64,000 bases of DNA, from NCBI GenBank assembly GCA_020072785.1, contig JAIQGG010000006.1:124001-188000 (forward strand). Direction: 5' to 3'. Positions within the stretch are counted from its first letter, which is position 1. Each line of letters begins with the position of its first letter. Below are positions 1,364-51,472 of this stretch, piece by piece. Under the pieces are notes generated by a model, which saw nothing but the letters and a program-made list of their open reading frames with translations, made no database searches and had not been told where the DNA came from. The DNA comes from Terriglobia bacterium (lineage in GTDB: Bacteria > Acidobacteriota > Terriglobia > Acidiferrales > UBA7541). Both the position numbers and the translations under genes were made by a program.

Positions 1364-2791
1364 CTAGTCTGCGTGCTCGGTGGTGGCTTCCAACGAGCCG
1401 GCCACCACAGGCCCGGCAACCCGCGTCGCCGGCAGCAGCGTGCGCAGGCCATAGATCGCGAATCCCGCCGCGATGATGAGCACGCCAAAGACCAGCCCGT
1501 TCATCCCCAGGAACTCCTCGCGCTGGCTGCGCACTACCGAGAGGCTCAGCAGCAGCATGGGAAAGACGCCCAGAAGCACGGCCCCGGCCAGGCCCCCGGG
1601 CACGCGAAACGCCCGCCGCAGTTGCGGCTCGCGAATGCGCAGCGCCACCAGCGTCACGAATTCCAGCGACAGGCTGGCCCCGTACAGCATCACGTCCAGC
1701 GTCACCAGGCGCTCGAATCCCAGCCCCAGGCACAGCGCCCAGCCCGTCGCGCAGACCAGGATGGCCACCCACGGCGCCCTCGTCTTAGGGTGCACCTTCG
1801 CGAAAAACTTCGGCAGCATTCCATCCTGGGCCATGGCCAGCGGCAGCCGCGAATAGCTCATCACCAGGGCGTTGAACATCCCGAAGCCGCTCATCATTCC
1901 GCCCAGCACCAGGGCCACGCGCAGCCAGTTCCCGCCGATCAGCCCGGCCAGGTCGGCCCACGACCCGGTTTCGAACGCCGCGGCCGGGATCCCCGTGAGG
2001 TACACCGCCAGCACCGGCAGGATGTAAGTCAGCGAAACGAGGATCACCGCCGCCAGCATCGCCCGCGGATAGGTGCGGTGTGGCCGCTCCACTTCCTGCG
2101 CAATCGTCGAGGCGTTGTCCCAGCCCATGTAGTTCCACATGGCGATGAGCGTGCCCCCCAGCAGCCCCACCGTGGAGGTCACCGGCGCGGTATGCGCCGC
2201 GGCCAGCGCGCCCATCTTAAACGGCGATAACAGCACCACCAGCGCGAACGGCGCCGACAGCAGGAAGAACAGCCACAGCGAGGTCATCCCCACGATCCGG
2301 ATCCCCGCAATGTTCAGCGCCGCGCAGGCCACCACCACGCCCAGCGCCACCAGCACCCCGCGATGCCCGAAGCCGAACCACGGCTCCAGCCGCGTCAGGT
2401 AGGCTACGAACAGCGTCGGGTAGATGGCCATGTCAAATATGCTGGCCACCAGCGACAGCCACGCCTCCTGAAAGCCCCAGAAATTGCCCAGCCCCCGCCG
2501 CACCCACGCGTAGTAGCCGCCCTCGGCCGGCAGCGCACTCCCCAGTTCCCCGATCAGGAACGCCGTCGGCAGGCTCCACAGCAGCGGCGTGAACAGCAAA
2601 ATCAGGATCGCCCGCCCGTAGCCCGCCCCATGCACGATCTCTTCCGTGCCGTAGGTTCCCCCCGACACCATGAAAAACGTGGCGGCGACCAGCGGCCAAA
2701 GGGTCAGCTTGACGATTCGCTTTCTTGCTGGGGGGACTGCGGCGGTTGACCGCTTCGCGGTCACGCAGTCGGTTGACCGCTTCGCGGTCAC
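1364..2791 (-). CDS. APC-superfamily amino acid permease
   Basis: An inner-membrane permease of about 460-475 residues with about 12 hydrophobic segments. The first helix carries the glycine-rich substrate-site stretch MVSGGTYG, typical of APC cation-coupled amino acid or polyamine transporters; GGYYAWVRRGLG follows in helix 2. The substrate cannot be told. The start is uncertain: the frame is open far upstream, and the region just before KLTLWPL consists of two copies of the window's palindromic repeat, read as VTAKRST. GTG at 2791 (first codon of one copy) is used here; GTG at 2764 or TTG at 2833 are alternatives, and none has a good ribosome site. It is divergent from the S9 peptidase gene. 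Confidence 0.8.
   Translation of the reverse strand: MTAKRSTDCVTAKRSTAAVPPARKRIVKLTLWPLVAATFFMVSGGTYGTEEIVHGAGYGRAILILLFTPLLWSLPTAFLIGELGSALPAEGGYYAWVRRGLGNFWGFQEAWLSLVASIFDMAIYPTLFVAYLTRLEPWFGFGHRGVLVALGVVVACAALNIAGIRIVGMTSLWLFFLLSAPFALVVLLSPFKMGALAAAHTAPVTSTVGLLGGTLIAMWNYMGWDNASTIAQEVERPHRTYPRAMLAAVILVSLTYILPVLAVYLTGIPAAAFETGSWADLAGLIGGNWLRVALVLGGMMSGFGMFNALVMSYSRLPLAMAQDGMLPKFFAKVHPKTRAPWVAILVCATGWALCLGLGFERLVTLDVMLYGASLSLEFVTLVALRIREPQLRRAFRVPGGLAGAVLLGVFPMLLLSLSVVRSQREEFLGMNGLVFGVLIIAAGFAIYGLRTLLPATRVAGPVVAGSLEATTEHAD
2745..2791 (+). repeat. Tandem pair of 20-bp palindromic repeats (27-bp period)
   Basis: Two perfect copies of GTTGACCGCTTCGCGGTCAC at 2745-2764 and 2772-2791, separated by 7 nt. 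Each forms a 7-bp stem (TGACCGC/GCGGTCA) with a TTC loop. They lie at the 5' end of the permease gene, where the minus strand reads VTAKRST twice. The 27-bp period equals nine codons, so the pair keeps frame. Confidence 0.9.
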
Positions 2792-3112
2792 GCCTTCGGA
2801 GGATAGCGGGGCGGGAAGCGCTGTGGTTCTCAATTCTTGCTCTTGCGTCCTCCTCGGCGATTTTCGCTTTCGCTCTGAAGCGTGTTCGCATGCGCAGAAT
2901 ACAAGTTTCCTTCCGCCATGCAAGAAGAAAATGCCTTTAGTGACAACTTTTTTTGCGCTCTGAGTGGCGCTCACGTGCCGGCCATCGCCACCCTCCCTGT
3001 GCATGCGCTTTCCCGCATCTTTTTCTGGCTTTCCTCCGTCGCCGCTGGCCGGGCCCTGTGCTAAACTCCGCGCCTTGGTCCGGCATTTCCTGCGGTTTCG
3101 GGAGGCTTGCGT
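2792..3112. other. Divergent intergenic region between permease and S9 peptidase
   Basis: This 321-bp stretch separates the divergent permease and peptidase genes and must hold both promoters. No clear -35/-10 pair was recognised. The only firm signal is the GGAGG ribosome site at 3101-3105 for the peptidase. Open frames on the minus strand continue from the permease into this region, so part of it may be translated if the permease starts further upstream. Confidence 0.5.
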
Positions 3113-5212
3113 ATGAAGATCGCTTCTGGAGTGCTGTTTCTTGCTGCTCTTCTGGGTATTTCGGCCACAGTTTCCGCGCAAGCTCCGCCGCAAGCCCCGC
3201 GCCCCATCACCATTGACGACTACTTCCAGATCCGCGAAGTCAGCGACCCGCAATGGAGCCCGGAGGCCCGTTGGGTCGCCTACACCGTCAAGACGCCCCT
3301 GCTCAAGGACGACAAGAACGAAGAGCGCATCTGGATGGTCCCCGCCGCCGGCGGCGCGCCTGTCGCCCTGACCGCCGAAGGCGTCTCCTCCTCCCACCCG
3401 CGCTGGAGCCCCGACGGCAACTACCTCGCCTTCCTCTCCGCCCGCTCCGGCGGCAAGCAGCAGGTCTGGCTGCTCAACCGCCTGGGCGGCGAAGCCCAGC
3501 GCCTCACCGACACCCCGCAGGACGTCAACGACTTTGCCTGGTCTCCGGACAGCCGCCGCCTGGTCCTGGTTCTCCGCGACGCCTCTCCGGAAGAGCTGGA
3601 AGCCGCCAAAGAAGTTGACCGCTTCGCGGTCACACCTGACAAAGACAAAGACGCGAAGAAAGAGCCCAAAACGCCGCGTCCCTGGGTCATCGACCGCCTG
3701 CAGTTCAAGCGCGACACCGTCGGCTATCTCGACCGCCGCCGCACCCACCTCTATCTCTGCGACCTTGCCTCGAAGAGCCTCACCCAGGTCACCTCCGGCG
3801 ACTATGACGACAGCGATCCCGCCTGGTCGCCCGACGGCCGCTCCCTGGCCTTCACCAGCAACCGCTCCGTCCCCGACCCCGACCACAACTACAACACCGA
3901 CATCTGGGTCGTCGCCGCCGACAACACCGACAAGGGCGCGCATCTCACGCAAGTCTCCACGAACCCCGGCGAAGATCGTTCCCCTGCCTGGTCGCCCGAC
4001 GGCAAATCGATCGCTTTCGTCAGCCAAATCGAGCCGCGCCTGTTCCAGTACGCCACGAAACATCTCGCCGTGGCCCCCGCCGCCGGCGGCGCGGCGAAAC
4101 TCCTCACCTTGGCCCTGGACCGCAACGTCAGCGATCCACACTTCGCTCCCGATGGCGCCTCCGTCTATTTCATCGCCGACGACGACGGCACGCAAAATCT
4201 CTGCCGCATTCCGGTTGCAGGGGGCGAAGTCACGCGGCCCGTCGGCGGCCGGGTAATGGTGAATGGCTATGCCCTCGCCAAATCCGGAGAAATCGCCGCG
4301 CAGATGGCCACCGTTACGCGTCCCGACGAGATTTACGCTCTGTCCGCCGGCCAGCTCACCCAAATCACGCATACCAACGATGCGCTGATGGCGCAGTTGA
4401 AGCTTTCTGAGGGCGAGTACGTCCATTTCAAAAGCAAGGATGGCACCACCGTCAGCGGCTACCTCTATAAGCCCCTCGATTACACCCCTGGCAAAAAGTA
4501 CCCCACCATCCTCCGCCCCCACGGTGGCCCCGTCTGGGCCTACTACGCCGAATTCAGCCACCTCGCCCAGCTCTTCGCCGCCAACGGCTATGCCGTGCTC
4601 TTTCCGAATCCGCGCGGCTCTTCCGGCTACGGACAGAGCTATTGCCAGGCGATCTTTGCGGATTGGGGCAACAAGGACTACCAGGACGACATGGCCATGG
4701 TGGACTATGCCCTTGCCCAGGGGATTGCCGATCCGGACAAGCTCGCCGTCGGCGGCTGGTCCTACGGCGGCATCTCCACCAACTTCATCATCACCCAGAC
4801 CACGCGCTTCAAGGCCGCCATCTCCGGCGCCAGCGAGTTCCTCTACGTCACCAACTACGGCCACGACCACTATCAGCGGGATTGGGAGACCGAGCTGGGC
4901 CTGCCCTGGGAGAATCGCGCGCTGTGGGAAAAACTCTCGCCCTTCAATAAAGTCACGAAGATCGCCACGCCGACGCTGGTCATGGGCGGCAACATCGACT
5001 GGAATGTTCCAGTCATCAATTCCGAGCAGCTCTACCAGTCCCTCAAGCGCCTCGGCATCCCCACCGAGCTCGTCGTCTATCCCGGCGAGTACCACGAATT
5101 CCAGATTCCCTCGCACATCAAAGACCGCCTCGAGCGCTACCTCGCCTGGTACGCCCACTACGTCAAAGGCGATCCAACGCCGGCCAGGCCCGTCGCCAAG
5201 CCCGCAGACTGA
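3113..5212 (+). CDS. Secreted S9-family peptidase (prolyl oligopeptidase/acylaminoacyl-peptidase type)
   Basis: A 699-residue exported serine peptidase. ATG 3113 is chosen because GGAGG lies 7 nt upstream; an upstream TTG at 3107 is unlikely. After the signal peptide (to about residue 24) comes a TolB/WD40-like propeller with repeated WSPDG motifs (about residues 40-380). The C-terminal alpha/beta-hydrolase carries the S9 triad: Ser550 in GGWSYGG, Asp629 in NIDWNVP and His661 in YHEF. Enzymes of this family cut short peptides, often dipeptides or acylated residues, from the N-terminus. Residues 168-174 (VDRFAVT) are encoded exactly by one copy of the palindromic repeat, in a charged variable loop. 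Confidence 0.93.
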   Translation: MKIASGVLFLAALLGISATVSAQAPPQAPRPITIDDYFQIREVSDPQWSPEARWVAYTVKTPLLKDDKNEERIWMVPAAGGAPVALTAEGVSSSHPRWSPDGNYLAFLSARSGGKQQVWLLNRLGGEAQRLTDTPQDVNDFAWSPDSRRLVLVLRDASPEELEAAKEVDRFAVTPDKDKDAKKEPKTPRPWVIDRLQFKRDTVGYLDRRRTHLYLCDLASKSLTQVTSGDYDDSDPAWSPDGRSLAFTSNRSVPDPDHNYNTDIWVVAADNTDKGAHLTQVSTNPGEDRSPAWSPDGKSIAFVSQIEPRLFQYATKHLAVAPAAGGAAKLLTLALDRNVSDPHFAPDGASVYFIADDDGTQNLCRIPVAGGEVTRPVGGRVMVNGYALAKSGEIAAQMATVTRPDEIYALSAGQLTQITHTNDALMAQLKLSEGEYVHFKSKDGTTVSGYLYKPLDYTPGKKYPTILRPHGGPVWAYYAEFSHLAQLFAANGYAVLFPNPRGSSGYGQSYCQAIFADWGNKDYQDDMAMVDYALAQGIADPDKLAVGGWSYGGISTNFIITQTTRFKAAISGASEFLYVTNYGHDHYQRDWETELGLPWENRALWEKLSPFNKVTKIATPTLVMGGNIDWNVPVINSEQLYQSLKRLGIPTELVVYPGEYHEFQIPSHIKDRLERYLAWYAHYVKGDPTPARPVAKPAD
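3614..3633 (+). repeat. Palindromic repeat inside S9 peptidase coding sequence
   Basis: A copy of GTTGACCGCTTCGCGGTCAC with only 1 nt difference from context expected (ends CAC followed by ACC). It is read in frame as VDRFAVT (residues 168-174 of the peptidase) between ELEAAKE and a Lys/Asp-rich loop. Confidence 0.92.
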
Positions 5213-5255
5213 CTCAGGCGGCTCAACCCCGCCCTTTCGCCGGATGCTCCCCAGT

Positions 5256-5355
5256 AGCACAGGCGGAACTTGTCCCGACTCGGTCGGGAGCCTGTGCTCT
5301 GCGCCGCAGGGGCCCGGCACCGCCGTGTTCGTTCTTTCTTTTTCTCTTTTTTCCT
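5256..5355 (+). terminator. Nested stem-loop followed by pyrimidine-rich tract after the S9 peptidase gene
   Basis: The outer stem AGCACAGGC (5256-5264) pairs perfectly with GCCTGTGCT (5290-5298). An inner stem TCCCGAC/GTCGGGA (5273-5279, 5283-5289) has a TCG loop. A T/C-rich tract follows at about 5327-5356. It could terminate transcription of the peptidase gene, or be a dispersed structured repeat; the distance from hairpin to T tract makes a classical terminator uncertain. Confidence 0.45.
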
Positions 5356-5418
5356 CCGTCTCCGTCATTGCCCGCGCACCCCGCTCGCGCTATCCTCATC
5401 CCCTTCGGGGAGGCGAGC

Positions 5419-8400
5419 ATGATTCTTCAGCGCAACGTGGTGCGATTTCTGGCGGGGATACTCTTTTTCCTGGCGGCTGGCGGCGCGCCCGCCCGCGCCC
5501 GGCAGCTCGACCACCAGGTCGGTCAAAATTTCGACCCGAAGCTTTTCTCCGAGATGCGCTGGCGGAGCATCGGCCCGTTCCGCGCCGGGCGCACTGTGGC
5601 CATCACCGGCGTGCCGCACCAGCCCAACGTCTTCTACATGGCCGCGGTGAACGGCGGCATCTGGAAGACCACCGACTTTGGCCACACCTGGCAGCCCATC
5701 TTCGATGGCCAGCCCACCGGCTCAATCGGAGCGCTGGCGCTGGCGCCTTCCGACACCAACATTATCTATGCCGGCAGCGGCGAAAGCCTGCAGCGGCCGG
5801 ACCTGGCGGTTGGCGACGGCGTGTACAAATCCACCGACGCGGGCCAGACCTGGCAGCACCTCGGCCTTGCCGACGCCCAGCAGATCACTGCCATCCTCGT
5901 CGATCCCAAGGACGCCAGCCGGGTCTATGTCGCCGTCCTCGGCCATCCCTACGGCCCGAACGCGGAGCGCGGCGTCTTCCGCTCCACCGATGGCGGGCAG
6001 ACCTGGAAGAAAATTCTCTACAAGGACGAGAACACCGGCGCGGCCGATCTGCTCTTCGATCCCGCCAACCCGCAGACGCTCTACGCCGCTCTGTGGGCCG
6101 CGCGCGTCGCGCCCTGGGAAGTGCGCGACGGCCGCTCCATCAACGGCCCCGGCAGCGGCCTCTACAAGTCCACCGATGGCGGCGACACCTGGGTCCCGCT
6201 GACCAGGGGATTGCCCGCGTTCGCCGATGGCTTGGGCCGCATCGGCGTCGCTGTCGCGCCCAGCCGTCCCAACCGCCTCTATGCCACGGTTACGGCAGCG
6301 AAGAATCCCGGAGTCTATCGCTCGGAGGACGGCGGCGAGACGTGGCAGCACGTCAACGACGACCACCGCATCGGCGGGGAAGGCCCGGGTGCCATGGGCA
6401 TCGCCGTCGCCCCGGACAATCCGGACCTGCTCTACGTCGCCAACACCACCACCTGGCGCTCCAGCGACGCCGGCAAGACCTTCACAGGATTCAAGGGCGC
6501 GCCCGGCGGCGACGATTACCAGCACATCTGGATCAGCACGGAGAACCCGCAGATCATCGCGCTCACCAGCGACCAGGGCGCCACGATCAGCGTGAACGGC
6601 GGCGCAACCTGGAGCAGCTGGTACAACCAGCCCACCGCGCAGTTCTATCACGTCACCACCGACAACCGCTTCCCCTATTGGGTCTACGGCGCGCAGCAGG
6701 AGAGCGGCTCCGCCGGCGTCGCCAGCCGCAGCGACTACGGCGAGATCAGCTTCCGCGAATGGCACTCCGTCGGCGTCTTCGAGTACGGCGACATCGCCAT
6801 CGACCCGCTGGACTCCAACGTCGTTTACGGCGCGCGCCTCACGCGCACCAATCAGGCCCTCGGCGAAGTCGCGGACATTGCTCCCGAGCCGGTGCGCCGC
6901 GGCGAGTACCGCTACGACCGCACGTTGCCGGTCGTCTTTTCGCCGCGCAATCCGCACGCCCTCTATTTCGCCGCCAACGTCCTCTTCAAGACCACCGACG
7001 CCGGCCGCAGCTGGACCATCGTTAGCCCCGACCTCACCCGCGAGTCCTACGAGGTGCCCGCGAATCTCGGCGCTTTCACCGCGCTCGACCCGGAAAAGGG
7101 CCGGCACCGCGGCGTCATCTACGCCGTGGCGCCTTCCTTCCTGGAATCGAACACCATCTGGGCCGGGACCGACGATGGCCTGATCCACATCACCCGCGAC
7201 GCGGGAAAGAGCTGGCAGAACATCACCCCGCCGCAGCTCACCCCGTGGAGCAAGGTTTCCATTATCGAAGCGTCGCACTTCGACGCCGGCACCGCCTACG
7301 CCGCCGTCAACCGCTTCCGCCTCGACGACCTGCACCCGCACATCTACCGCACCCGCGACTTCGGCAAGTCCTGGCAGGAGATCACCGCGGGCCTGCCGGA
7401 GAATGCGCCGGTCAACGCCGTGCGCGAGGATCCCGGGCGCCAGGGCCTGCTCTTCGCCGGGACGGAGACTTCGGTCTATGTCTCCTTCAACGACGGCGGC
7501 GCCTGGCAGCCGTTGCAGCTCAATCTCCCGCATACTTCCATGCGCGACCTGGCCATTCACGGCGACGACCTGATCGCCGGTACGCATGGCCGCGGCTTCT
7601 GGATCCTCGACGACATCACCCCGCTGCGCCAGCTTTCCGCGGACGTCGCCGCCGCCGCTGTGCATCTCTTCGCCCCGCAGACGGCCATCCGCTTCCGCTG
7701 GAACCGCAACACCGATACGCCGCTGCCGCCGGAAATCCCCGCCGGGAAAAATCCTCCCGACGGCGCGATCATCGACTACTCCTTGCAAGCCGCCGCGGCC
7801 GGCCCCGTGACCCTCGAAATCCTCGATGCGGAAGGGAAGCTCGTGCGCCGCTACGCCAGCACGGACAAGCCCGAGCCTCTCGAAAAAATCGCCAAGGAAT
7901 ACCCCATCCCGCTGTATTGGGTGCGCCCGGCGCGGATTCTTTCCGCCGCAGCCGGCATGCACCGCTTCGTCTGGGATATGCATTACGCCGCGCCCGATGC
8001 TCTCGAAACCGAATTCCCCATCTCGGCGATCTACCGCGATACGCCGAAAGTTCCCCTCGGAGCGCGGGCGCTTCCGGGGCACTACACCGTGAAGCTCACC
8101 GCGGACGGCAAGAGCTATACTCAGCCGCTCACCGTGCGGATGGACCCGCGCATCACCACGCCGCTGGGCGAGCTCGCCCAGCAGTTTGCGATGCAAGCGG
8201 GTTGCGTGCAGGGCATGAACGAAAGCTACGCGGCGCTGCAGCAGGTGCAGGCGCTGCGCGCGCAATTGAAGGAGCGCGCCGCAAAGGCGGCGCAGGGCAA
8301 GCTCGCCGGGCCCATCGCCGCGCTCGACAAACAAGCCGCGGAACTCGAAGGTGAAGTCACGGACAGTTTTGCCGGGCTGCCTCCCAGCGGCAAGCAGCCG

Positions 8401-8673: not shown

Positions 8674-8686
8674 CGCGCCTTAGACG

Positions 8687-9442: not shown

Positions 9443-9639
9443 GACGGTCCTCCGGATGGCGATTCGCCGGCCGCGATTGTACAGGGCCGGGAATTGTTTC
9501 GCCAGAGTCGTGAACCGCCCGCGCAGCGCAACTCCCGCCGCCCCGTCTCCAGCCGTTGATTACTTACGCAAAGGGCTGTGCATCCCGGTCTTGCCGGGGC
9601 CGGCTTTTTGCTACGCTGAAGCAACGGATGCACACACCA

Positions 9640-9659
9640 CTCCGCACTGACGTGCGGAG
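9640..9659. other. Hairpin upstream of the OmpA-like gene
   Basis: A perfect 8-bp inverted repeat CTCCGCAC-TGAC-GTGCGGAG lies 71 bp before the GTG start of the OmpA-domain gene. A GC-rich palindrome plus T5 (9593-9609) lies just upstream. Together they could form a leader structure or stop stray transcription, but function is not shown. Confidence 0.35.
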
Positions 9660-9730
9660 CCCTCGCTTCCACAGAGCGGGAGGAAAGCCAATCGGTCCAA
9701 TCGCCCGGAAGGGTGATGGGGGAGTGAAAC

Positions 9731-11461
9731 GTGAGAGTTTTCAATTTTGTACTGTCACAGATGGCCCTGTTCGGGCTCTTGGCTGCGGGAGCGCCCGCGC
9801 AGTTGACCGCTTCGCGGTCATCCATACAGTCGTCCAGCCAGGCGGCGCCGCCACAGCAAAAGGAGTCGAGCCCGCTCTATCGCATTACCGTCTCGGCGCG
9901 CACCACCAAGGCTATCAACTACCGGCACTTGAGCGGCCCCACGAAGATCGATTTCCGCGGCACCATCCTCCTGCCTTTCGCCCATGGCGTGGCCAAGGTG
10001 GAAAGCAAGCGCGGGGCGGTGCGCATCCAGGCGCAATTTGAAAAGGTCGATCCGGCGACGCGATTCGGGCCGGAATTCCTGACCTACGTGCTGTGGGCCA
10101 TCTCGCCGGAGGGCCGCCCCGACAATCTGGGCGAGGTTCTTCTGGACAATAAGGGAAAGTCCAAGCTGGACGTCACGGCTCAACTGCAGGCCTTTGCGCT
10201 GATTGTGACCGCGGAGCCCTATTTCGCGGTGACCCGGCCGAGCGAAGTGGTGGTCATGGAAAACGTGGTGCGCCCGGACACCGTCGGCAACGTGGAAGAG
10301 ATGGACGCCAAGTTCGACCTGCTGCAGCGCGGGCAGTACTCCTACGTGGAAGCCAGCGCGCAGCCCCCGGTGCTCGACCCGGGAACGCCGCTCGGACTTT
10401 TCGAGGCCCGCAACGCAGTGCAGATCGCGCGTGCCGCGGGAGGCGAGCATTACGCGGAAGACAGCTTTCGCAAGGCGGCGCAGCTCCTGCACCAGGCCGA
10501 GGACATGCACAAAGGCCGGGCCGACAAGAAGCAGGTGGAGATGACCGCGCGGGAAGCGGTGCAGACCGCGGAGGATGCACGCGCGATTACGGTCAAGCGC
10601 CGCGATGAGGAAAAAGTGGAGATGGAGCGGCGGGCGGCGGCGGAACGCGAGGCCCAGGCGCGGGCCGATGCCGAAGCGGCGCAGCGCGCGAAACTGGAGG
10701 CGCAACTGGCCACCGAGCGGGCGGCGCGGGAACGCGCGGAAGCGGAAGCCGCGCGTGCCGCGGCGCTGGCGCAGCAACAGGCGGCGCAGGCCCAGGCCGA
10801 GCAGTCGCGGCTGGCCGCGGAGCAGTCGGCGCGGGAAAAGGCGGAAGCCGACGCGGCGCGCGAGGCGGCGCAGGCCCAGCAACTGAAGGCCCAGGCCGAA
10901 GCCGAGCAGTCGCGGCTGGCCGCGGAACGCGCGGCCCGGGATAAGGCCGAGGCGGAAGCGGAAACGGCGAAGGCGCGCAAGGCCACGGAACAGGCGGAGG
11001 CGGAGAAGGCCGAGCTGCGCCAGCGGCTGCTGAACCAGCTCAATACCATCCTGCAGACCCGCGACAGCGCCCGCGGCCTCATCGTGAACATGTCCGATGT
11101 GCTCTTCGACACCGGGAGCTCGACGCTGAAACCCGGCGCGCGCGAGAAGCTGGCCAAGATCTCCGGCGTGGTCCTGGCCCATCCCGGCTTGAATTTGCAG
11201 GTGGAGGGGCATACCGACAGCGTGGGCAGCGACGAAATGAACCAGCAGCTCTCCGAACGCCGTGCCGCTTCGGTGCGCGACTTCCTGGTGCAAGAGGGGG
11301 TTCCGGAGGCTGCGGTCACCTCGCGGGGTTTCGGCAAGACGCAGCCGGTAGCCTCCAACGATACGGCCGAAGGGCGCCAGAGAAACCGCCGCGTCGAACT
11401 CGTGGTCACCGGCGACGCCATCGGCTCGACGGCCAAGGAAGCTGCCGCCTCCCCGAAGTAG
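9731..11461 (+). CDS. OmpA-family envelope protein with long coiled coil
   Basis: A 576-residue exported protein. GTG 9731 is the start, with GGAG 6 nt upstream. Signal peptide about 1-23 (ends GAPAQ). Residues 45-230 form a soluble domain of unknown fold. Residues 280-430 are a long Ala/Glu/Gln/Arg coiled coil (AEREAQARAD, AAREAAQAQQ). The C-terminal OmpA/MotB domain (about 445-565) has VLFDTGSSTLKP, VEGHTDSVGSDEMNQQLSERRA and GRQRNRRVEL, which bind peptidoglycan. It probably links the outer envelope to the cell wall. One palindromic-repeat copy encodes LTASRS right after the predicted signal cleavage site. Confidence 0.88.
   Translation: MRVFNFVLSQMALFGLLAAGAPAQLTASRSSIQSSSQAAPPQQKESSPLYRITVSARTTKAINYRHLSGPTKIDFRGTILLPFAHGVAKVESKRGAVRIQAQFEKVDPATRFGPEFLTYVLWAISPEGRPDNLGEVLLDNKGKSKLDVTAQLQAFALIVTAEPYFAVTRPSEVVVMENVVRPDTVGNVEEMDAKFDLLQRGQYSYVEASAQPPVLDPGTPLGLFEARNAVQIARAAGGEHYAEDSFRKAAQLLHQAEDMHKGRADKKQVEMTAREAVQTAEDARAITVKRRDEEKVEMERRAAAEREAQARADAEAAQRAKLEAQLATERAARERAEAEAARAAALAQQQAAQAQAEQSRLAAEQSAREKAEADAAREAAQAQQLKAQAEAEQSRLAAERAARDKAEAEAETAKARKATEQAEAEKAELRQRLLNQLNTILQTRDSARGLIVNMSDVLFDTGSSTLKPGAREKLAKISGVVLAHPGLNLQVEGHTDSVGSDEMNQQLSERRAASVRDFLVQEGVPEAAVTSRGFGKTQPVASNDTAEGRQRNRRVELVVTGDAIGSTAKEAAASPK
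9802..9821 (+). repeat. Palindromic repeat at the signal-peptide junction of the OmpA-like gene
   Basis: GTTGACCGCTTCGCGGTCAT, one mismatch (last base) from the consensus. The gene reads it in a second frame, as LTASRS at residues 25-30, directly after the predicted signal peptide. Confidence 0.9.
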
Positions 11462-11585: not shown

Positions 11586-11631
11586 GCGGAAAGGGGATGT
11601 GGGGCACATGCCTCGCGACTGCAACGCATTT

Positions 11632-11716: not shown

Positions 11717-13039
11717 CTAGTGGGCCGGTTGCGGAGCGCGGGCCAGGAGGGTTTCAGTGCCCTGCAGGTGGAGGACCAGGATCTTGCCGTTGGAACGATA
11801 GCTGCCGCCGGTGGCGGTGGTGGCTTCGAGGACCGGGTCCGCCGGCAAAAAGTAATGGGATTCCGCCAGGCGGCTTGCCGTGGCCAGGCATTCCCCGACG
11901 AAGTCGCGCTCCTGGTCCACTTCCGGATCGATCTTGTGGGTGAGGGACCATTTATGCTGGTCTTTCTCGATGCCGATGTCGTGCGTCGCGGCGCCCGCCC
12001 AGACCGGATAGCCGGCCACCTCGTAGCCGGTCTTCCAGATGCGCAGGTGGTGACGGCGGGTCACCGTGGAAGCGGTGTCTTCCTTGGCATAGCCGTAATC
12101 CTGGGGACGGCCGAAGAGGAAGAGACGGCTCATGGGCATGGCCACATTGTTTTTGGGATCGTGCGCGGCGTGCCAGAAGGCATGTGGTTTGGAGCGGATG
12201 GTTTCAATCCAGCCGGCCTGTGCGAAAGCCTCTTCGAGCTGCTCCTGGGTGCCGACGAAGACCAGGTTGACCATGTCCCCTTCGTGGCCCTGGCCGTTGA
12301 GAACGCGGCGGGGAAGCAGCGTGGTGAGTTGCTCTAGGGTGACTTGGTTTGCCGGGGTTGCCGCGGTGGGCATCGCTGTCGGCCCTGCAGGCTGGGCCGA
12401 TTCCGCCGTGAGCGCCCGGTTGAATCTGGCGGCATCCAGGGGGAAGTTCCCGTGCACGTGGGCGGTCACTTCCGTGCCCTGCAGCAGGACGCTTTCCTGA
12501 CCGCGCAAAAAGAGCAGCGCCGGGGCCGCCGGATAGAAAGCCAGGGCGGTGACGGCCATGCCCGTGGCCATAACGGTCTTGTGTCCTCCGCCGCGAACTT
12601 CTTTCTCCGAGCGCAGGGCCACGGTCTGGCCGGTGCTTAGACGGATGGAATCGAGGCGCAGTTTGAGCTTGCCGCCGCGCCCCATGCGGCGCTTCTTGTG
12701 CACGGCCGTGATGGTGGCTTGGGCCACGCTGCCGCGCGGGATCACCGGAAACCCGTTCAGCAGGACGTCGTAGATCACTTCAAAGTCCACCGTATCGCCG
12801 GGATGGGCGTCGGCGGAAGAGACGGTACGCAAGGCGCGCAGCTTGAGGGGCGTGCCGTTGGCGAGGACGAACGGGTGGGAGGCGCTGGCCGCGGCGGCCG
12901 TACGGGGAATTTCCGTGGCGGTTGACTGCTTTGCCGTCACACTGACAAGGGACTGCGCGGCGGCAGGAAGCGCGCCCGCCAGTAGCAGGCTCAGAAGTAT
13001 GGCCGGCCGAATTTGCAGAAGTCTACACACGGCTCTCAC
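11717..13039 (-). CDS. Exported LssY-C domain protein
   Basis: A 440-residue protein; GTG 13039 starts a hydrophobic signal peptide ending near AAAQ (residue 29). The middle (about 55-200) contains a conserved region of unknown fold with a Lys/Arg-rich segment (KKRRMGRGGKLK). The C-terminal part (about 250-410) matches the LssY-C domain: DMVNLVFVGTQEQLEEAF, FLFGRPQDYGY, RHHLRIW, VWAGAATHDIGI and HKIDPEVDQERD. In other bacteria this domain is often joined to membrane phosphatase or DedA regions; here it is secreted alone. Function unknown. Residues 34-40 (VTAKQST) come from a decayed palindromic repeat. Confidence 0.75.
   Translation of the reverse strand: MRAVCRLLQIRPAILLSLLLAGALPAAAQSLVSVTAKQSTATEIPRTAAAASASHPFVLANGTPLKLRALRTVSSADAHPGDTVDFEVIYDVLLNGFPVIPRGSVAQATITAVHKKRRMGRGGKLKLRLDSIRLSTGQTVALRSEKEVRGGGHKTVMATGMAVTALAFYPAAPALLFLRGQESVLLQGTEVTAHVHGNFPLDAARFNRALTAESAQPAGPTAMPTAATPANQVTLEQLTTLLPRRVLNGQGHEGDMVNLVFVGTQEQLEEAFAQAGWIETIRSKPHAFWHAAHDPKNNVAMPMSRLFLFGRPQDYGYAKEDTASTVTRRHHLRIWKTGYEVAGYPVWAGAATHDIGIEKDQHKWSLTHKIDPEVDQERDFVGECLATASRLAESHYFLPADPVLEATTATGGSYRSNGKILVLHLQGTETLLARAPQPAH
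12921..12940 (+). repeat. Decayed palindromic repeat inside the LssY-C gene
   Basis: GTTGACTGCTTTGCCGTCAC, three changes from the consensus, one of which breaks a stem pair. Read on the minus strand as VTAKQST at residues 34-40, just after the predicted signal cleavage site. Confidence 0.75.
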
Positions 13040-13919: not shown

Positions 13920-13966
13920 GTTGACCGCTTCGCGGTCACAGAAATAGTTGACCGCTTCGCGGTCAC
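13920..13966 (+). repeat. Tandem pair of palindromic repeats upstream of aroF (27-bp period)
   Basis: Two perfect copies of GTTGACCGCTTCGCGGTCAC at 13920-13939 and 13947-13966, separated by AGAAATA. The period of 27 bp is the same as in the 2745-2791 pair, though the 7-nt spacers differ. The last copy ends 47 bp before the aroF start. Confidence 0.9.
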
Positions 13967-14013
13967 ACGAAAAATCGTTTGCCGTCCCCAAAGTACTGTA
14001 AAGGGACCTGACC

Positions 14014-25983: not shown

Positions 25984-26090
25984 CCCAACGCTTCCGCGCT
26001 GGGCTAACGTGTGTCGCGCCTATGGCGCTGGGGATTCTTCCAGGAAAAGTCGGAAGACCCACCCTCAAAAACGGTAGGTGGGGCACCCGG
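25984..26090 (+). repeat. Long composite dispersed repeat (hairpin unit plus 63-bp unit)
   Basis: This copy joins two units found apart elsewhere: the hairpin unit CCCAACGCTTCCGCGCTGGG-CTAACGTGTGTCGCGCC (as at 27410 and 27453) and the 63-bp unit starting GCTGGGGATTCTTCC (as at 25061). It lies between the nuclease-like gene and higA. Confidence 0.8.
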
Positions 26091-27409: not shown

Positions 27410-27495
27410 CCCAGCGCTTGCGCGCTGGGCTAACGTGTGGCGCGCCTCCGGACCCAGCGCTTCCGCGCTGGGCTAACGTGTGGCGCGCCTACGGC
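27410..27495 (+). repeat. Two tandem 43-bp hairpin repeats
   Basis: Units at 27410-27452 and 27453-27495. Each begins with the hairpin CCCAGCGC-TT(G/C)C-GCGCTGGG, then CTAACGTGTGGCGCGCCT and CGGA/CGGC. They differ at only a few bases. The same unit is part of the composite copy at 25984. The rest of the gap 27301-27594 shows a possible glgA promoter only. Confidence 0.85.
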
Positions 27496-27544
27496 GCCGG
27501 GGGAGGCGCGTGCGACTCCACGGAAAAAGGCGGGATGGGCGGCC

Positions 27545-44900: not shown

Positions 44901-45105
44901 GCTCCGACATGTTGGTGATGCGCTGCTCCATCTCCTGAGGAGCGAGGCCGGTGTAGGTCCAGACGACGCTGATGACGGGGATGTTGATGTCGGGGAAAAT
45001 GTCGGTGGGGGTGCGCTGGAGGGCCACCGGCGCGAGCAGCAGGATGACCAGCGCCAGCACGAGGAACGTGTAGGGGCGGGATAGAGCGATGCGAACGATC
45101 CACAT
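41929..45105 (-). CDS. RND multidrug efflux pump, inner-membrane transporter (AcrB-like)
   Basis: A 1058-residue proton-driven transporter with 12 membrane helices and two large periplasmic loops. The first loop begins after ALQRTPTDIFPDINIPVISV. The proton-relay aspartates are in GILVDDATVTIE, and SWRSTLIIAISIPLSIL precedes them; GAIMCMGVATANSILLVSFA marks helix 10-11. The usual trimeric-pump features fit the hydrophobe/amphiphile RND subfamily rather than heavy-metal pumps. It is first in the operon with the adaptor and outer-membrane lipoprotein. No tetR-type regulator is adjacent. Confidence 0.94.
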   Translation of the reverse strand: MWIVRIALSRPYTFLVLALVILLLAPVALQRTPTDIFPDINIPVISVVWTYTGLAPQEMEQRITNMSERATTVLVSDVEHIESQSLPGTSVIKIFFQPGANISTAMAQTTAISQSILKFLPPGATPPLVIIYSASTVPVLQIGMTSDTMSEQQLFDYGNNFIRTQLATVQGAAMPFPYGGKQRLISVDIDPAALQAKGLSPVDVVNAVSAQNLILPSGTAKIGPLEYSVEMNGSPQTIAEMNDLPIRTVNGATIYMRDVAHIRDGFSPQTNIVRVNGQRGVLMSIYKTGSASTLDIVARVNALLRQTSKSFPEGLHIAQLFDQSLFVRAAVQGVLNEAIIAACLTAIMILLFLGSWRSTLIIAISIPLSILSSVLALSALGQTINIMTLGGLALAVGILVDDATVTIESIERHSAMGKELIESILAGAEEIATPAFVSTLCICIVFVPMFLLTGVAKFLFVPLAEAVIFAMLASYILSRTLVPTLVMYLLRHEGHDEPGRRPGLFRRYQQGFERRFHSFREGYRRSLESALHHAPLVALIFILFCGASAGIGLGLGRDFFPGVDAGLIRLHVRTRTGLRIEETARLCDEVESVIRENIPRRDLVTVLDNIGLPYSGINLVYSSSGTIGTEDAEILLQLQKEHGRPTREYVQQLRQILPRKFPGVQFFFQPADIVAQILNFGTPAPIDVEIVGMDEAGNYAAAQKLANQMRHIPGAVDIHVQQAFDEPALRMEFDRSRLQSVGLNARDVAQNVLVSLSSSFQTAPTFWVDPKNGVSYNVAVQTPQYRMDSFQALQNTPVRAASAPSQILGNLVRTSAVARPAAISHYNVQPMINVYAAVDGRDLGGVSGEVTRLVQGAEKDLPRGSGIAIRGQVQTMQTSFAGLGLGLLGAIILIYLLIVVNFQSWLDPFIIITALPGALAGILWMLLLTQTTLNVPSLTGAIMCMGVATANSILLVSFAREQMRLGRSAFDAALEAGFVRIRPVLMTALAMIIGMVPMAVGLGEGGEQNAPLGRAVIGGLIFATVATLFFVPCVFSIIHGRREKRNRPGAPSAAPAGV

Positions 45106-45294
45106 AAAGCTTCGAGTCCACCTGTCAGGGGGGCACCGTCCAGCGGCCCACGGCCCGGTATTTCGTTAGATTCGCGGCGCGGCCTCGCGGGTACGGAGTA
45201 CTTCTGCCATGCGCACCGCTCCCGGCGGCGGCCCAGGCGAATTTTCCGGCGCGTTGCGGCAAGCCGGAGCGAACTGCGCGCGACTATTGTATGC

Positions 45295-45314
45295 GTGACC
45301 GCGAAGCGGTCAAC
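45295..45314 (-). repeat. Palindromic repeat, intergenic copy
   Basis: GTGACCGCGAAGCGGTCAAC, the exact reverse complement of the consensus. Flanking GTATG and CATAC extend the inverted repeat with one bulge, giving a longer hairpin than other copies. Confidence 0.9.
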
Positions 45315-45453
45315 ATACGATACCGCGTTTTCGGCTGGAAATTCGACAGGCAGCGTGTGACCCCGCGCCGCGGAAGGGCCGTCCGGGGAAACCCCTGCGA
45401 AGATGCGCGGGGAAAAAACCGCGCCCGCGCGGCTGTGCTATGATGTCTCCGGC

Positions 45454-45473
45454 GTGACCGCACCGCGGTCAGC
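45454..45473 (-). repeat. Palindromic repeat, loop-variant copy
   Basis: GTGACCGC-ACC-GCGGTCAGC keeps both 7-bp stem arms perfectly, but the loop is ACC instead of GAA and the outer bases differ. It lies 53 bp before the AsmA-like start codon. Confidence 0.6.
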
Positions 45474-45525
45474 GCTGTTGTTCTTGCCTCGAGAAGCACG
45501 TTCCGGCCTCGCGCTGGAGGTTCCC

Positions 45526-47265
45526 ATGAGCACCAATCGCATTCGTACCCTCGCCATCGTTCTGGGTGTCTTGGTTGTACTACTGCTGCTGCTGCCTTCC
45601 CTCATCCCCGTGAATCAATTTCGTTCCACCGTCGAGGAGAAACTTTCCGCCGCGCTGGACCGCAAGGTGCATGTCGGGAATCTAAGTCTTTCGCTCTGGT
45701 CCGGCGCCCTGGCGGCCGAGGAGCTGTCTATCGCGGACGATGCGAAGTTCAGCGCCGCGCCGTTTTTGACGGCCAAGGCCCTCAAGGTCAAGGTCGAGGT
45801 CATGGCGCTGATTTTCTCGCGTGCGCTGCACATCACCGGTCTGACGATCGAGAAGCCCGAAGTGACGCTGCTGCGCGACGCGGCCGGGCGCTGGAATTTC
45901 TCGTCGCTGGGCGGGGCGCCGGCAAAGTCCGAGCCGCGGCGGGCGGCGCAAGCGCCGGCGCAGTCGTCGGATGCCGCCGCGGAACTTCTGGTGCAGAAAA
46001 TGGAGTTGAAGGACGGGCGGCTGCTGATCGGGACCATGGGGTCGGCGAAGCGCGCCAGCTATGACAATGTGAACGCGGAAGCCTCGGATGTGTCCATGAG
46101 CGCGGCGTTTCCGGCGAAGGTGACGGCGAGCCTGCCGGGCGGGGGGAGCTTCAAGCTGGAGGGGCGTGTGGGCCCGCTGAACCCGAACGACGCCTCGCTT
46201 TCCCCGGTGGACGCGAAGATTTCCATCGACGGGCTGGACCTGGCTTCGACCGGGGTGATTGATGCCGCGGCGGGGCTTGGCGGAATCCTGGACCTGGATG
46301 CCACGCTCACCTCGCAGAAAGGCGAAGTGCAGACCAAAGGCACGATGAAGCTGAAGAAGCTGCTGCTAGTGGCGGGCGGGTCTCCGTCCACGGTTCCCGT
46401 TACGCTGGATTTTTCCACGAAATCGGATATGCAGAGAAATACGGGGGTGCTGAACCCCTCGGCGATCAAGGTGGGCAACGCGGCCGCGCGCATCGCAGGA
46501 ACCTACGAGACGCGCGGAGAAGCCACGGTCGTGAATCTCAAGTTCGCCGGCCAGGACATGCCGGCGCGCGACCTGCAGGGCTTTCTCCCGGCGCTGGGCA
46601 TCAACCTGCCCAAGGGGGCGTCGCTCTCATCGGGCATGCTCAGCGGGGATCTGAACATTCAGGGGCCGACGAACCGCCTGATCACCTCGGGGACCCTGGG
46701 GCTGGCGAATGCCCGGGTGAGCGGGTTCGATCTGGGTTCGAAGCTCGCCGTGATTTCCGCGCTGGCCGGCGTGAAGACGGGATCGGACCTGGACATCGAG
46801 AAGCTGACCACGAAAATCCGCATGGCCCCGGACGGGCTGCGCGCCGAGAATTTCAATGCGGTCATCCCCGCGCTGGGCACGCTGGTGGGCGCGGGGACGG
46901 TAGACGCGAAGAACAACCTGGACTTCAAAATGCTGGCGACGCTGACGGGCGGGCCGGCAGCCGCTGGTACAACGGGAGGTGCGGGCGCGGCGCCCGCGGG
47001 AGGAGCAGCTACGACTGGCGGGGGAGGAGTGGCCGGGATGCTCGGCGCGCTGCTCGGCCCGGCCAAGGGCGGACAGGCGCGGCGCATTCCGTTCCTGATT
47101 CAGGGCACGGCCTCCGATCCCAAATTTGTTCCCGATGTGCAGGGGCTGGCCACGGAAATGCTGAAGTCGCAGTTCAGCGGAAGCGGGGCGCAGAAGGACA
47201 CCCAGCAGCCGGACAGCGGTCCCCTGGGCGGGCTGGGGGAACTGTTTAAGAAGAAAAAGCCGTGA
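45526..47265 (+). CDS. AsmA-family envelope protein
   Basis: A 579-residue protein anchored by one N-terminal membrane helix (IVLGVLVVLLLLLPSLIPV). ATG 45526 has GGAGG 5 nt upstream. The N-terminal AsmA domain shows VEEKLSAALDRKVHVGNLSLSLWSGALAAEELSI, and a C-terminal AsmA-like part contains GMLSGDLNIQG and ARVSGFDLGSKLA. A Gly/Ala-rich linker (about residues 485-515) precedes the tail. AsmA-like proteins are elongated lipid-transport or outer-membrane assembly factors in the periplasm; the exact role here is unknown. Confidence 0.87.
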   Translation: MSTNRIRTLAIVLGVLVVLLLLLPSLIPVNQFRSTVEEKLSAALDRKVHVGNLSLSLWSGALAAEELSIADDAKFSAAPFLTAKALKVKVEVMALIFSRALHITGLTIEKPEVTLLRDAAGRWNFSSLGGAPAKSEPRRAAQAPAQSSDAAAELLVQKMELKDGRLLIGTMGSAKRASYDNVNAEASDVSMSAAFPAKVTASLPGGGSFKLEGRVGPLNPNDASLSPVDAKISIDGLDLASTGVIDAAAGLGGILDLDATLTSQKGEVQTKGTMKLKKLLLVAGGSPSTVPVTLDFSTKSDMQRNTGVLNPSAIKVGNAAARIAGTYETRGEATVVNLKFAGQDMPARDLQGFLPALGINLPKGASLSSGMLSGDLNIQGPTNRLITSGTLGLANARVSGFDLGSKLAVISALAGVKTGSDLDIEKLTTKIRMAPDGLRAENFNAVIPALGTLVGAGTVDAKNNLDFKMLATLTGGPAAAGTTGGAGAAPAGGAATTGGGGVAGMLGALLGPAKGGQARRIPFLIQGTASDPKFVPDVQGLATEMLKSQFSGSGAQKDTQQPDSGPLGGLGELFKKKKP

Positions 47266-47390
47266 AGAGCGTGAGCCGTGACCCTGGTTGGTGACTTGTA
47301 GGCAGGGAGTGCTCGCTGTGCGGGGGCGCGGGTAATCGTTTGCGCGCTTTTTCCTTTGCCGTCTATTCCGGTCCCTTTTTTTCTCCGTGA

Positions 47391-47419
47391 CCTCTGTGAC
47401 TCGGTGGCTATCCCATCTT
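47391..47419 (-). repeat. CACAGAG-type short dispersed repeat, copy 2
   Basis: TTCTCCGTGACCTCTGTGAC then TCGGTGGC; on the minus strand GCCACCGAGTCACAGAGGTC, a relative of the copy at 51487. It lies in the gap before the thiolase gene. Confidence 0.55.
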
Positions 47420-47477
47420 GCTTTTTCTGGCGCTGGGGCATCCAATATGAGGCAGAGTTTATGGAGCGAGGTGGGGC

Positions 47478-48686
47478 ATGGCTGAAGCCGTGATTGTTTC
47501 CTCGATACGCACGCCGGTGGGCAGGGCGTTCAAGGGCGCGCTGCGCGCGACGCGCCCGGACGATCTTGCCGCGGAAGCCATCAAGGCGGCCCTGGCGCGG
47601 GTGCCGGGGCTGGATGCCAAGGAGATCGAGGACGTCATCCTGGGCTGCGCCATGCCCGAGGCCGAGCAGGGGATGAACGTGGCGCGCATCGCTTCGCTGC
47701 GCGCGGGCTTGCCTGTCGAGTGTTCGGCGATGACCATCAACCGCTTCTGCTCGTCGGGGCTGCAGGCCATCGCCATCGCGGCGGAACGCATCCGCTGCGG
47801 CGCGGCGGAGGTGATCCTCGCGGGCGGCACGGAGTCCATGAGCCTGGTGCCCATGGGCGGGAACAAGATTTCCCCGAATCCCTGGCTGGTGGACAATAAT
47901 CCGGATTCTTACATCAGCATGGGCCTGGGCACGGAGCATGTCGCCCGGAAGTACGGGATTACGCGCGAGGCGGCGGACAAGTTTTCCTACGCGAGCCACC
48001 AGAAGGCCCTGGCCGCGATTGCCGCCGGGAAGTTCAAGGACGAGACCGTGCCCGTGGAAGTGAGGATCACGGCGTGGCCCAGCGGCAACGGCGCCGGAAA
48101 AGGGAAGGGCGCGGCCAAGGCGGCGACGCAGACCTTTGTGTTTGACACCGACGACGGCCCGCGCGCGGATACTTCCATGGAAGCGCTGGCCAAGCTGAAG
48201 GCCGCGTTTCACGTGCAGGGCACGGTGACAGCAGGGAACAGCTCGCAGATGAGCGACGGTGCGGCGGCGGCGGTGGTGATGAGCGAGGCGCGCGCCAAGG
48301 CGCTGGGGCTGAAGCCGCTGGCGCGCTTTGTGTCGTTCGCCACGGCAGGGTGCCCGCCGGAGGAGTTCGGCGTCGGGCCGGTCTATGCGATCCCCAAGGC
48401 GCTGAAGCTGGCGGGGCTGAAGCTGGACGACATCGCGGTGATCGAGCTGAACGAAGCCTTCGCGGCGCAGTCGCTGGCGGTGATCCAACAGGCGGGGCTC
48501 GATCCGGCGCGGGTCAATCCCAACGGCGGCGCGATCGCTTTGGGCCATCCGCTCGGCTGCACCGGAGCGAAGCTGACGGCTTCGATCATCCGCGAGTTGC
48601 AGAGGCGCAATGCGCGCTACGGTCTGGTGACCATGTGCATCGGCGGCGGCATGGGCGCCGCGGGCATCCTCGAGCGGGTGTCGTAG
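47478..48686 (+). CDS. Acetyl-CoA acyltransferase (3-ketoacyl-CoA thiolase)
   Basis: A 402-residue thiolase that cleaves 3-ketoacyl-CoA in beta-oxidation (degradative type by length and neighbours). Active-site Cys91 is in [12 protein letters not shown]; the C-terminal [29 protein letters not shown] (His) and [13 protein letters not shown] (second Cys) are all present. The next gene starts 1 nt after its stop, and a long-chain acyl-CoA dehydrogenase follows, so the three may form one unit. The matching FadB-type protein is not in the window. Confidence 0.94.
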
Positions 48687-48687
48687 G

Positions 48688-49464
48688 ATGCGCTCCACGA
48701 AATCAGCCTGGTTCCTTGCAACGATTCTGTTGCTTTGCGGCGGGATGCTGCGCGGGCAGGCGCCGGCCGCGCCACCTGCTGCGGCGCCGCAGGCGGTTCC
48801 AGTGCGGGGCGAGCCGCGGCATCACCTGGCGTTTGAAAACGGCTACGTGCGGGTGTTCGCGGTGGAGGTGGCGCCGCACGACGCCACGCTGCTGCACGAG
48901 CACGCTCTCGACTATGTCTACGTCACGCTGGGCACGGCGGACATCGTCAACGCAGTTTTCGGCAAGCCGGAGGTCCATGCGCAGTTGAAGGACGGGGAGG
49001 TGCACTTCGCGCGCGGGGGATTCGCGCATGTGGCGCGCAACCTGAGCGACCTGCCCTTCCGCAATCTCACCATTGAGTTCTTGAAGCCCCAGGGCGAGGT
49101 GCACAACCTCTGCGAGAAAATCGTGCCCGGCGACGCGGGGCCGTGCGAGAAAGTCCAGGGGAAAGGCCATGTGACCACGCCGCTGATGGAGACGGCGGAA
49201 ATGCGCATCGAGTTGGTTCGGCTGGACCCGCAAGCGCAGAAGATCGAAATGGCGCCCGGCACAGGAACCCTGGTGGCCGCGCTGGAACAGGCCGGTATCG
49301 AAGTGGAATCCGAGGGGCAGCCGCCGGCGAGCATCGCCACCGGGGGACTCTTGTGGCTTCCGGCCGGGTCGCGGCAAGTTTTCTCCAATCTTCGCAACAC
49401 GCCTGCAAATTTTCTGCGGATCGCTTTCAAGGACAGCGGGGCGCAGGAAACAACCGTGCACTGA
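48688..49464 (+). CDS. Exported cupin-like protein of unknown function
   Basis: A 258-residue protein with a signal peptide (to about residue 23). The body shows two cupin-like repeats: FENGYVRVFAVEVAPHDATLLHEHALDYVYVTL (with H/E/H residues suggesting a metal site in the first) and a second repeat around IELVRLDPQ, with LLWLPAGSR and GAQ at its end. It is closely coupled to the thiolase gene (ATG 1 nt after the stop), yet an exported cupin has no clear tie to beta-oxidation. The family was not identified further. Confidence 0.7.
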   Translation: MRSTKSAWFLATILLLCGGMLRGQAPAAPPAAAPQAVPVRGEPRHHLAFENGYVRVFAVEVAPHDATLLHEHALDYVYVTLGTADIVNAVFGKPEVHAQLKDGEVHFARGGFAHVARNLSDLPFRNLTIEFLKPQGEVHNLCEKIVPGDAGPCEKVQGKGHVTTPLMETAEMRIELVRLDPQAQKIEMAPGTGTLVAALEQAGIEVESEGQPPASIATGGLLWLPAGSRQVFSNLRNTPANFLRIAFKDSGAQETTVH

Positions 49465-49648
49465 GGATTTCCCCCGGCCTTCCGGAGTTTTTCCCGGTGA
49501 TATACCGTGTGGCAAACCTGTACTGCACGGCGTTTGCCGGGCGGGCAGACCCGGGAGTAAGATACCTTCCCAGCGGGCTCCTCGCACCCGCTTGGCACGC
49601 ACGCGGCCTGGCCGCGTACCAGTTCACCACGCGCACCCGGAGGCAATC

Positions 49649-51448
<1,800 letters not shown>

Positions 51449-51452
51449 GAAA

Positions 51453-51472
51453 GTTGACCGCTTCGGGGTCAC
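51453..51472 (+). repeat. Palindromic repeat just after the acyl-CoA dehydrogenase stop
   Basis: GTTGACCGCTTCGGGGTCAC, one base from the consensus; the change breaks one stem pair. It begins 5 bp after the stop codon. Confidence 0.85.

What the first reader, a model, noticed from the sequence alone, without database searches (positions are those of the whole stretch)
2745..51472. A 20-bp palindromic repeat scattered through genes and intergenic DNA
GTTGACCGCTTCGCGGTCAC (stem TGACCGC/GCGGTCA, loop TTC) occurs at 2745, 2772, 3614, 9802, 13920, 13947, 45295 (inverse), 51453 and, decayed, at 12921 and 45454. A given 20-mer is not expected by chance to recur in 64 kb. Copies occur in coding sequence in several frames (VDRFAVT, LTASRS, VTAKRST) and in gaps. 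It behaves like a very short mobile palindrome tolerated in proteins, similar in concept to Rickettsia palindromic elements or REP sequences, but no transposase (for example RAYT) is seen here.
Basis: partly seen in the sequence, partly recalled or inferred. Interest (0 to 1): 0.78.

Follow-up and report, generated by a model that had tools for sequence, protein, structure and literature searches.

The report
A 27-bp mobile DNA hairpin
One genus of soil Acidobacteria carries a 27-base-pair DNA hairpin that has spread to about 300 places in this genome, entering with no flanking duplication and often adding exactly nine amino acids to a protein, which makes it one of the smallest mobile DNA units seen; the enzyme that moves it is not identified.

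Summary
The repeat is a 27-bp unit: a conserved 20-mer hairpin (GTTGACCGCTTCGCGGTCAC) plus a 7-nt variable tail. The genome (Acidobacteriota gp2) holds about 300 copies. The repeat is abundant in three species of one genus, sparse and decayed in others of that genus, and at chance level elsewhere. Neighbouring copies lie head to tail at exactly 27 bp. Against a syntenic relative about 90% identical, occupied and empty sites differ by exactly 27, 54 or 81 bp, with no target-site duplication. Two in-gene copies (window 3614, an S9 peptidase; and tilS, outside the window) are 9-residue insertions absent from all relatives aligned, so they are gains. Insertion favours positions just 5' of RAKGA. 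Stems show compensatory changes. Copies are strongly depleted in genes. Strand orientation anticorrelates with GC skew. No reverse transcriptase was found in this genome or in its closest relative. RAYT-type HUH transposases exist in the genome but are flanked by other hairpins. Best reading: a non-autonomous, SDR/REP-like hairpin moved as single-stranded DNA by a trans-acting HUH-type enzyme. Mobility is shown; the mechanism is inferred. It fails the tested defining features of GTAG- and CGTC-tagged REPs.

The parts
2745..2771 (+). 27-bp unit, first of a head-to-tail pair (core 2745-2764 + tail GCAGTCG)
   Evidence: Exact core; this 27-bp unit is absent at the orthologous site of G007, which has one unit
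2772..2798 (+). 27-bp unit, second of the pair
   Evidence: Exact core; ortholog present in G007
3614..3640 (+). 27-bp unit inserted in frame (VDRFAVTPD) in an S9 prolyl-oligopeptidase-family gene
   Evidence: Exact core; absent from G007 and from 29 relatives; Pfam PF00326
3107..5212 (+). host gene: Peptidase_S9 / PD40 protein carrying the 9-aa insertion
9802..9828 (+). 27-bp unit, one mismatch, near the start of an OmpA-family ORF (9731-11461)
12921..12947 (+). decayed 27-bp unit (3 core mismatches)
   Evidence: 27-bp gap in G007 ortholog, weak flanks 28/40
13920..13946 (+). 27-bp unit, first of an intergenic pair upstream of a DAHP synthase gene (14014-)
   Evidence: Exact core; both units of the pair also present in G007
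13947..13973 (+). 27-bp unit, second of the intergenic pair
   Evidence: Exact core; ortholog in G007
45288..45314 (-). 27-bp unit on the minus strand (core 45295-45314)
   Evidence: Exact core; G007 has two units here
45447..45473 (-). old, decayed unit (core 45454-45473)
   Evidence: degenerate ortholog in G007
51453..51479 (+). 27-bp unit, one mismatch, intergenic just after an acyl-CoA dehydrogenase ORF
   Evidence: G007 ortholog has a perfect core

Best explanation
A non-autonomous mobile DNA element with a 27-bp transposing unit: GT + 7-bp stem / 3-nt loop + C + a heritable 7-nt tail. SHOWN: it has been gained recently at many sites as exactly 27 bp, with no target duplication, just 5' of RAKGA-like sequence. 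It adds 9 codons in frame when it lands in genes in one of the four stop-free frames, and otherwise it sits between genes. It builds head-to-tail arrays of period 27. INFERRED: a trans-acting HUH-type (Y1-like) nuclease acts on single-stranded DNA of the complementary strand, 5'-TCMTY^-tail-GTGACC-GCGAAGC-GGTCAAC^. It cuts after TCMTY in the target and after the similar GTCAAC at the element end, and pastes the 27-nt hairpin strand preferentially into the lagging-strand template. Because the element's own 5' end (GTTGAC) resembles the target (RAKGAC), new copies land directly in front of old ones, which would explain the arrays.
For: Copy number and controls. Exact 27-bp period. 18 clean junctions differing by 27, 54, 81 or 162 bp with no duplication. 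Lineage-specific gains polarised by 29 relatives (S9 peptidase) and about 28 relatives (tilS). G005-only 27-bp insertions at other sites. Target preference RAKGA 22% against 0.4% genome, present before insertion in several empty alleles. Compensatory stem changes, 21 cells against 6.5 +/- 2.3 in shuffles, none of 500 reaching it. Strong ssDNA hairpin, z about -4.5, with a GAA triloop inside GCGAAGC on the bottom strand. GTTGAC strand prefers the negative GC-skew strand: sign-flip p 0.0008 in G000 and 0.02 in G007, same direction in G005 (p 0.13, weighted 0.04), while RAKGA supply is skewed the opposite way, r 0.94. No reverse transcriptase in G000 or G007. Published behaviour of Y1 elements, which excise from and insert into the lagging-strand template (PMC6006769).
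Against: No cognate transposase was found. The Y1 genes in G000 and G007 are flanked by different hairpins, and RAYT numbers do not follow element copy number: G034 has 18 matches and 1 element copy. No gene flanked by the element is shared by the three rich genomes. GC skew is noisy and only a proxy for replication direction. In C2 425-1180 kb (positive skew) no bias is seen (my count). A single hairpin serving both ends is not the known IS200/IS605 layout. The faster divergence of the tail at shared sites (73.5% against 88% identity in intergenic flanks) is not predicted by simple insertion.
Confidence: 0.5

Rival explanations
1. Same 27-bp mobile element, but moved by another no-duplication mechanism: a Y2 HUH (IS91/Helitron-like) nuclease acting on the top strand with the target at its 3' end, or a recombinase that makes no duplication.
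For: A one-sided target lying 3' of the top strand and absence of duplication fit IS91-like systems too (IS91 layout from general knowledge).
Against: The strand bias puts the top strand preferentially on the negative-skew strand. No IS91-type element was searched for specifically. The 27-bp size is far below known IS91 derivatives.
Confidence: 0.2
2. RNA-mediated spread: the hairpin is transcribed, reverse transcribed and inserted (as has been proposed for the Nostoc SDR elements), with the A-rich tail and RAKGA target acting in target priming.
For: A-rich tail next to an A/G-rich target; hairpin with compensatory changes.
Against: No PF00078 reverse transcriptase in G000 (98.9% complete) or G007. 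Tail sequences vary widely.
Confidence: 0.1
3. The 27-bp differences are precise losses of an ancestral repeat rather than gains.
For: Pairwise comparison alone cannot polarise most sites.
Against: Two in-gene cases are absent from 29 and about 28 relatives. The repeat is confined to one genus and abundant in three species.
Confidence: 0.03
4. A conserved functional site (protein-binding site, terminator or promoter element) or chance sequence, multiplied only by tandem slippage.
For: Mostly intergenic (149 of 212 copies). Tandem arrays can grow by slippage (7 units, six with an identical tail, in L076).
Against: Sites are not conserved between relatives. Orientation to genes follows the background. 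New copies arise at unrelated sites inside unrelated proteins.
Confidence: 0.02

Closest known systems
SDR elements (small dispersed repeats) of Nostoc punctiforme, Elhai et al. 2008 Genome Res 18:1484 (known here from memory and from citations in PMC3116915 and PMC4390886)
   Same: 21-27 nt, dispersed, hairpin-forming with compensatory changes, precise insertion (SDR5 inside the HIP1 octamer), insertion into or next to their own copies, mobiliser unknown
   Different: Different phylum. Here a strict 27-bp head-to-tail unit, a one-sided RAKGA target, in-frame protein insertions and no reverse transcriptase.
GTAG-tagged REP sequences with RAYT/TnpA_REP (PMC3733652, PMC6006769, PMC2817692)
   Same: High-copy 20-40 bp hairpins, mostly intergenic, sometimes inside proteins; RAYT-like genes exist in the same genome
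   Different: No GT[AG]G foot, no RAYT flanked by the repeat, no inverted doublets (REPINs), exact direct tandem period instead
CGTC-tagged REPs, including Rickettsia RPE-4 and RPE-6 (PMC3733652)
   Same: Palindromes without a dedicated transposase, in-frame inside proteins
   Different: No CGTC tag; 7-bp stem and 3-nt loop rather than 8-9 bp and 4-5 nt; head-to-tail rather than head-to-head dimers
IS200/IS605 (IS608, ISDra2) single-strand transposons
   Same: Hairpin recognition, one-sided target, no target duplication, lagging-strand preference (here indirect)
   Different: No encoded transposase, one hairpin instead of two, 27 nt long, cognate enzyme not found
Class 3 TnpA_Y1 and their hairpins in Acidobacteria (PMC6006769; about 600 copies in Solibacter usitatus)
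   Same: Acidobacteria, high-copy atypical hairpins
   Different: Published foot is CnGA; not seen here, and no class 3 motif in the parts of G000, G007 and G005 scanned

Membership tests
GTAG REP / RAYT | short palindromic hairpin in high copy, mainly intergenic | tested here: met
   about 300 copies; 149 of 212 intergenic although about 84% of the held sequence is coding
GTAG REP / RAYT | GT[AG]G tetranucleotide at the foot of the hairpin | tested here: not met
   5' foot is GT directly before TGACCGC; column profile
GTAG REP / RAYT | cognate RAYT gene flanked by the repeat | tested here: not met
   G000 and G007 Y1 genes are flanked by GTAG-GCGCCGGGCTTTAGCCCGGC or GGGTGCCCCAC hairpins, not the 27-mer
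GTAG REP / RAYT | inverted doublets (REPIN/BIME) | tested here: not met
   67 same-strand and 2 opposite-strand neighbours within 150 bp; 57 at exactly 27 bp
CGTC REP / RPE-4, RPE-6 | CGTC tag, 8-9 bp stem, 4-5 nt loop, head-to-head dimers | tested here: not met
   against PMC3733652 section 6
SDR (very small mobile repeats) | 21-27 bp dispersed unit with precise insertion | tested here: met
   27-bp insertions at empty sites
SDR (very small mobile repeats) | secondary structure with compensatory changes | tested here: met
   21 double changes against 6.5 +/- 2.3 in shuffles
SDR (very small mobile repeats) | sequence relationship to the published SDR families | not testable with these tools
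   the paper is not held
SDR (very small mobile repeats) | RNA intermediate (proposed) | tested here: inconclusive
   no PF00078 reverse transcriptase in G000 or G007; other enzymes not excluded
IS200/IS605 (Y1 single-strand) element | insertion without target duplication next to a fixed target on one side | tested here: met
   the target is a preference, not an invariant sequence
IS200/IS605 (Y1 single-strand) element | lagging-strand orientation bias | tested here: inconclusive
   anticorrelation with GC skew in three genomes, but skew is only a proxy
IS200/IS605 (Y1 single-strand) element | cognate TnpA acting on its ends | tested here: inconclusive
   Y1 genes present but none linked to the element

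The most novel reading that the evidence does not exclude
A 27-nt single hairpin is the complete transposing unit of a new class of single-strand DNA element. One hairpin serves both ends, the enzyme in trans is not a RAYT of known linkage, and the unit length is a multiple of three, so proteins gain 9-residue modules.
Probability: 0.35. Interest if true: 0.85.

Novelty: new variant of a known kind. Interest (0 to 1): 0.64.

Why it matters
If right, this is among the smallest mobile DNA units with precise empty sites documented, in a phylum where such elements are little described. It comes with a syntenic sister genome (about 90% identical) that gives many occupied/empty pairs. That makes an open question testable: how repeats far too small to encode anything spread, and whether a single hairpin suffices for HUH-type single-strand transposition. 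It also shows recent nine-residue insertions in genes such as tilS and an S9 peptidase, a source of protein variation usually missed in annotation.

Tried and rejected
Virus, phage and plasmid collections: no match in viral contigs or phages, and only two weak chance-like plasmid matches. Literature search for the 17-mer and 15-mer sequences: none. RAYT as linked mobiliser: rejected for flanking hairpins; the fourth Y1 gene (G000 C2:1033014) was not found in G007. Reverse transcriptase as mobiliser: absent. An element-flanked carrier gene shared by the three rich genomes: none; in this genome the flanked genes include RNase HII, a TPR protein and an enoyl-CoA hydratase. Sibling hairpin families in G020 and G022: none in 200 kb each. 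Functional site near promoters or terminators: orientation to genes follows background. Exact matches in Paenarthrobacter and a Blastocatellia MAG are single copies and look like chance; the Nitrospirae MAG copy carries a CCATAAA tail like G005 and bears the same sample label as a gp2 MAG, so it is probably mis-binned. A covariation test with up to 6 mismatches was swamped by background; repeated at up to 4.

Full report
OBSERVATION. The 20-mer GTTGACCGCTTCGCGGTCAC occurs at all positions listed, with 0-3 mismatches, against zero in shuffles. The window is part of a 3.73-Mb, 98.9% complete genome. Its relatives in the same genus are named in public records as Acidobacteriota subdivision 2 MAGs. 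The genome has 302 copies of the 17-bp core at up to 2 mismatches, against 1 for the reversed control.

UNIT. Aligning 157-220 copies from stretches of the genome shows a sharp 5' edge at GTTGAC, random sequence before it, a conserved 20-mer, then a 7-nt degenerate tail (GCATACA, AGAAATA, ACATACA and others). Of 58 neighbouring same-strand copies closer than 100 bp, 54 are exactly 27 bp apart; inverted neighbours are nearly absent (2 against 67 within 150 bp). Tail positions covary strongly (positions 21 and 23, z about 20), so the tail appears to be inherited with the unit and not taken from each target.

MOBILITY. G007 is about 90% identical and syntenic. Comparing orthologous sites gives 18 clean junctions where one genome has 27, 54, 81 or 162 bp more, exactly the element, with no target duplication. 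In the window, 3614-3640 is inserted in an S9 peptidase gene (AAKE-VDRFAVTPD-KDKD against AAKE-KDKD); the nine residues are absent from all 29 relatives aligned. In tilS the same holds for VDRLAVTHA. Three insertions of exactly 27 bp are specific to the more distant G005. The two in-gene cases are gains; most other sites are polarised only by analogy.

DISTRIBUTION. In the genus the numbers at up to 3 mismatches are 310 (G000), 307 (G007), 121 (G005), then 28 and fewer, often in degraded form but still with 27-bp spacing. In 299 genomes of the class, copies outside the genus are 0-1 per genome, chance level. None in viral contigs or phage records.

CONTEXT. Using gene calls from my own codon-usage script (84% coding), 149 of 212 copies are intergenic, 45 inside genes and 18 partly. 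The frames read VDRFAVTxx (23), DREAVN (12), LTASRS (7) and VTAKRST (3). The two frames with TGA never occur, as expected. Orientation to flanking genes follows the background, which argues against a terminator or promoter role. Host genes of in-gene copies include tilS, comEC, a TonB protein and an asparaginase.

TARGET AND STRAND. Downstream of the last unit the sequence RAKGA is found in 22% of cases against 0.4% of the genome, and several empty alleles already have it or something close. The element's own start, GTTGAC, resembles this target, which would place new copies directly in front of old ones at 27 bp. The GTTGAC strand prefers the strand with negative GC skew in G000 (34+/54- where skew is positive, 58+/24- where it is not; sign-flip by locus p 0.0008), G007 (p 0.02) and, more weakly, G005 (p 0.13; weighted 0.04), although RAKGA is commoner on the positive strand (r 0.94). 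G000 and G007 share many insertions, so they are not fully independent. If GC skew follows replication as in most bacteria, the complementary strand lies preferentially in the lagging-strand template, where Y1 transposases of the IS200/IS605 family work (PMC6006769). That strand carries GCGAAGC, known as an extraordinarily stable DNA mini-hairpin (general knowledge; papers found). This is indirect support only.

STRUCTURE. Distinct cores show 21 paired double changes in the stem against 6.5 +/- 2.3 in shuffles. ssDNA folding z is about -4.5.

MOBILISER. Not found. No reverse transcriptase in G000 or G007. G000 has three Y1 transposase genes plus one weak one, G007 one. Their flanks carry other hairpins: GTAG-GCGCCGGGCTTTAGCCCGGC, and GGGTGCCCCAC.... 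RAYT numbers do not follow element numbers. Genes flanked by the element are ordinary.

UNEXPLAINED. At sites occupied in both G000 and G007 the tail is only 73.5% identical while intergenic flanks are 88% and the core 91%. Repeated replacement or gene conversion between copies, or parallel insertions at the same target, could do this; not resolved.

COMPARISON. It works like the Nostoc SDR elements and like REPs. Tested features exclude membership of GTAG REPs (no GT[AG]G foot, no linked RAYT, no inverted doublets) and of CGTC REPs (tag, stem, loop, dimer type). Membership of a published SDR family could not be tested.

VERDICT. A real, recently mobile 27-bp element, a new variant of very small mobile repeats. 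Mobility, unit length, lack of duplication and lineage-specific gains are shown (confidence about 0.95). The HUH single-strand mechanism is inferred (about 0.5).

Noticed in passing
window 25984-26029 and 27453-27498 (+): Two Acido-Lenti-1 RNAs (RF01687) above the gathering score.
   Followed up: no
window 51480-51520: Second repeat type GCCACAGAGACGCAGAG just after the 51453 copy, with a length difference to G007.
   Followed up: no
L020 5390-6300 (G000 C1:420390-421300): A RAYT-type transposase gene flanked by several GTAG-tagged hairpins containing GCCGGGCTTTAGCCCGGC: an ordinary REPtron with its own REP family.
   Followed up: partly
L264, L280, L266: RAYT-like genes flanked by GGGTGCCCCAC hairpins, with relatives across the genus.
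   Followed up: partly
L041 1713-7381 (G000 C3:121713-127381): 5.7-kb stretch 99.98% identical between G000 and G007, which are about 90% identical elsewhere: recent transfer, a mobile element, or a binning artefact.
   Followed up: no
orthologous copies G000/G007: The 7-nt tail diverges faster (73.5% identity) than intergenic flanks (88%) at shared sites.
   Followed up: partly
L076 1198- (G007): Array of seven units, all but the last with tail ACTTATC, against one unit in G000: tandem amplification in one lineage.
   Followed up: no
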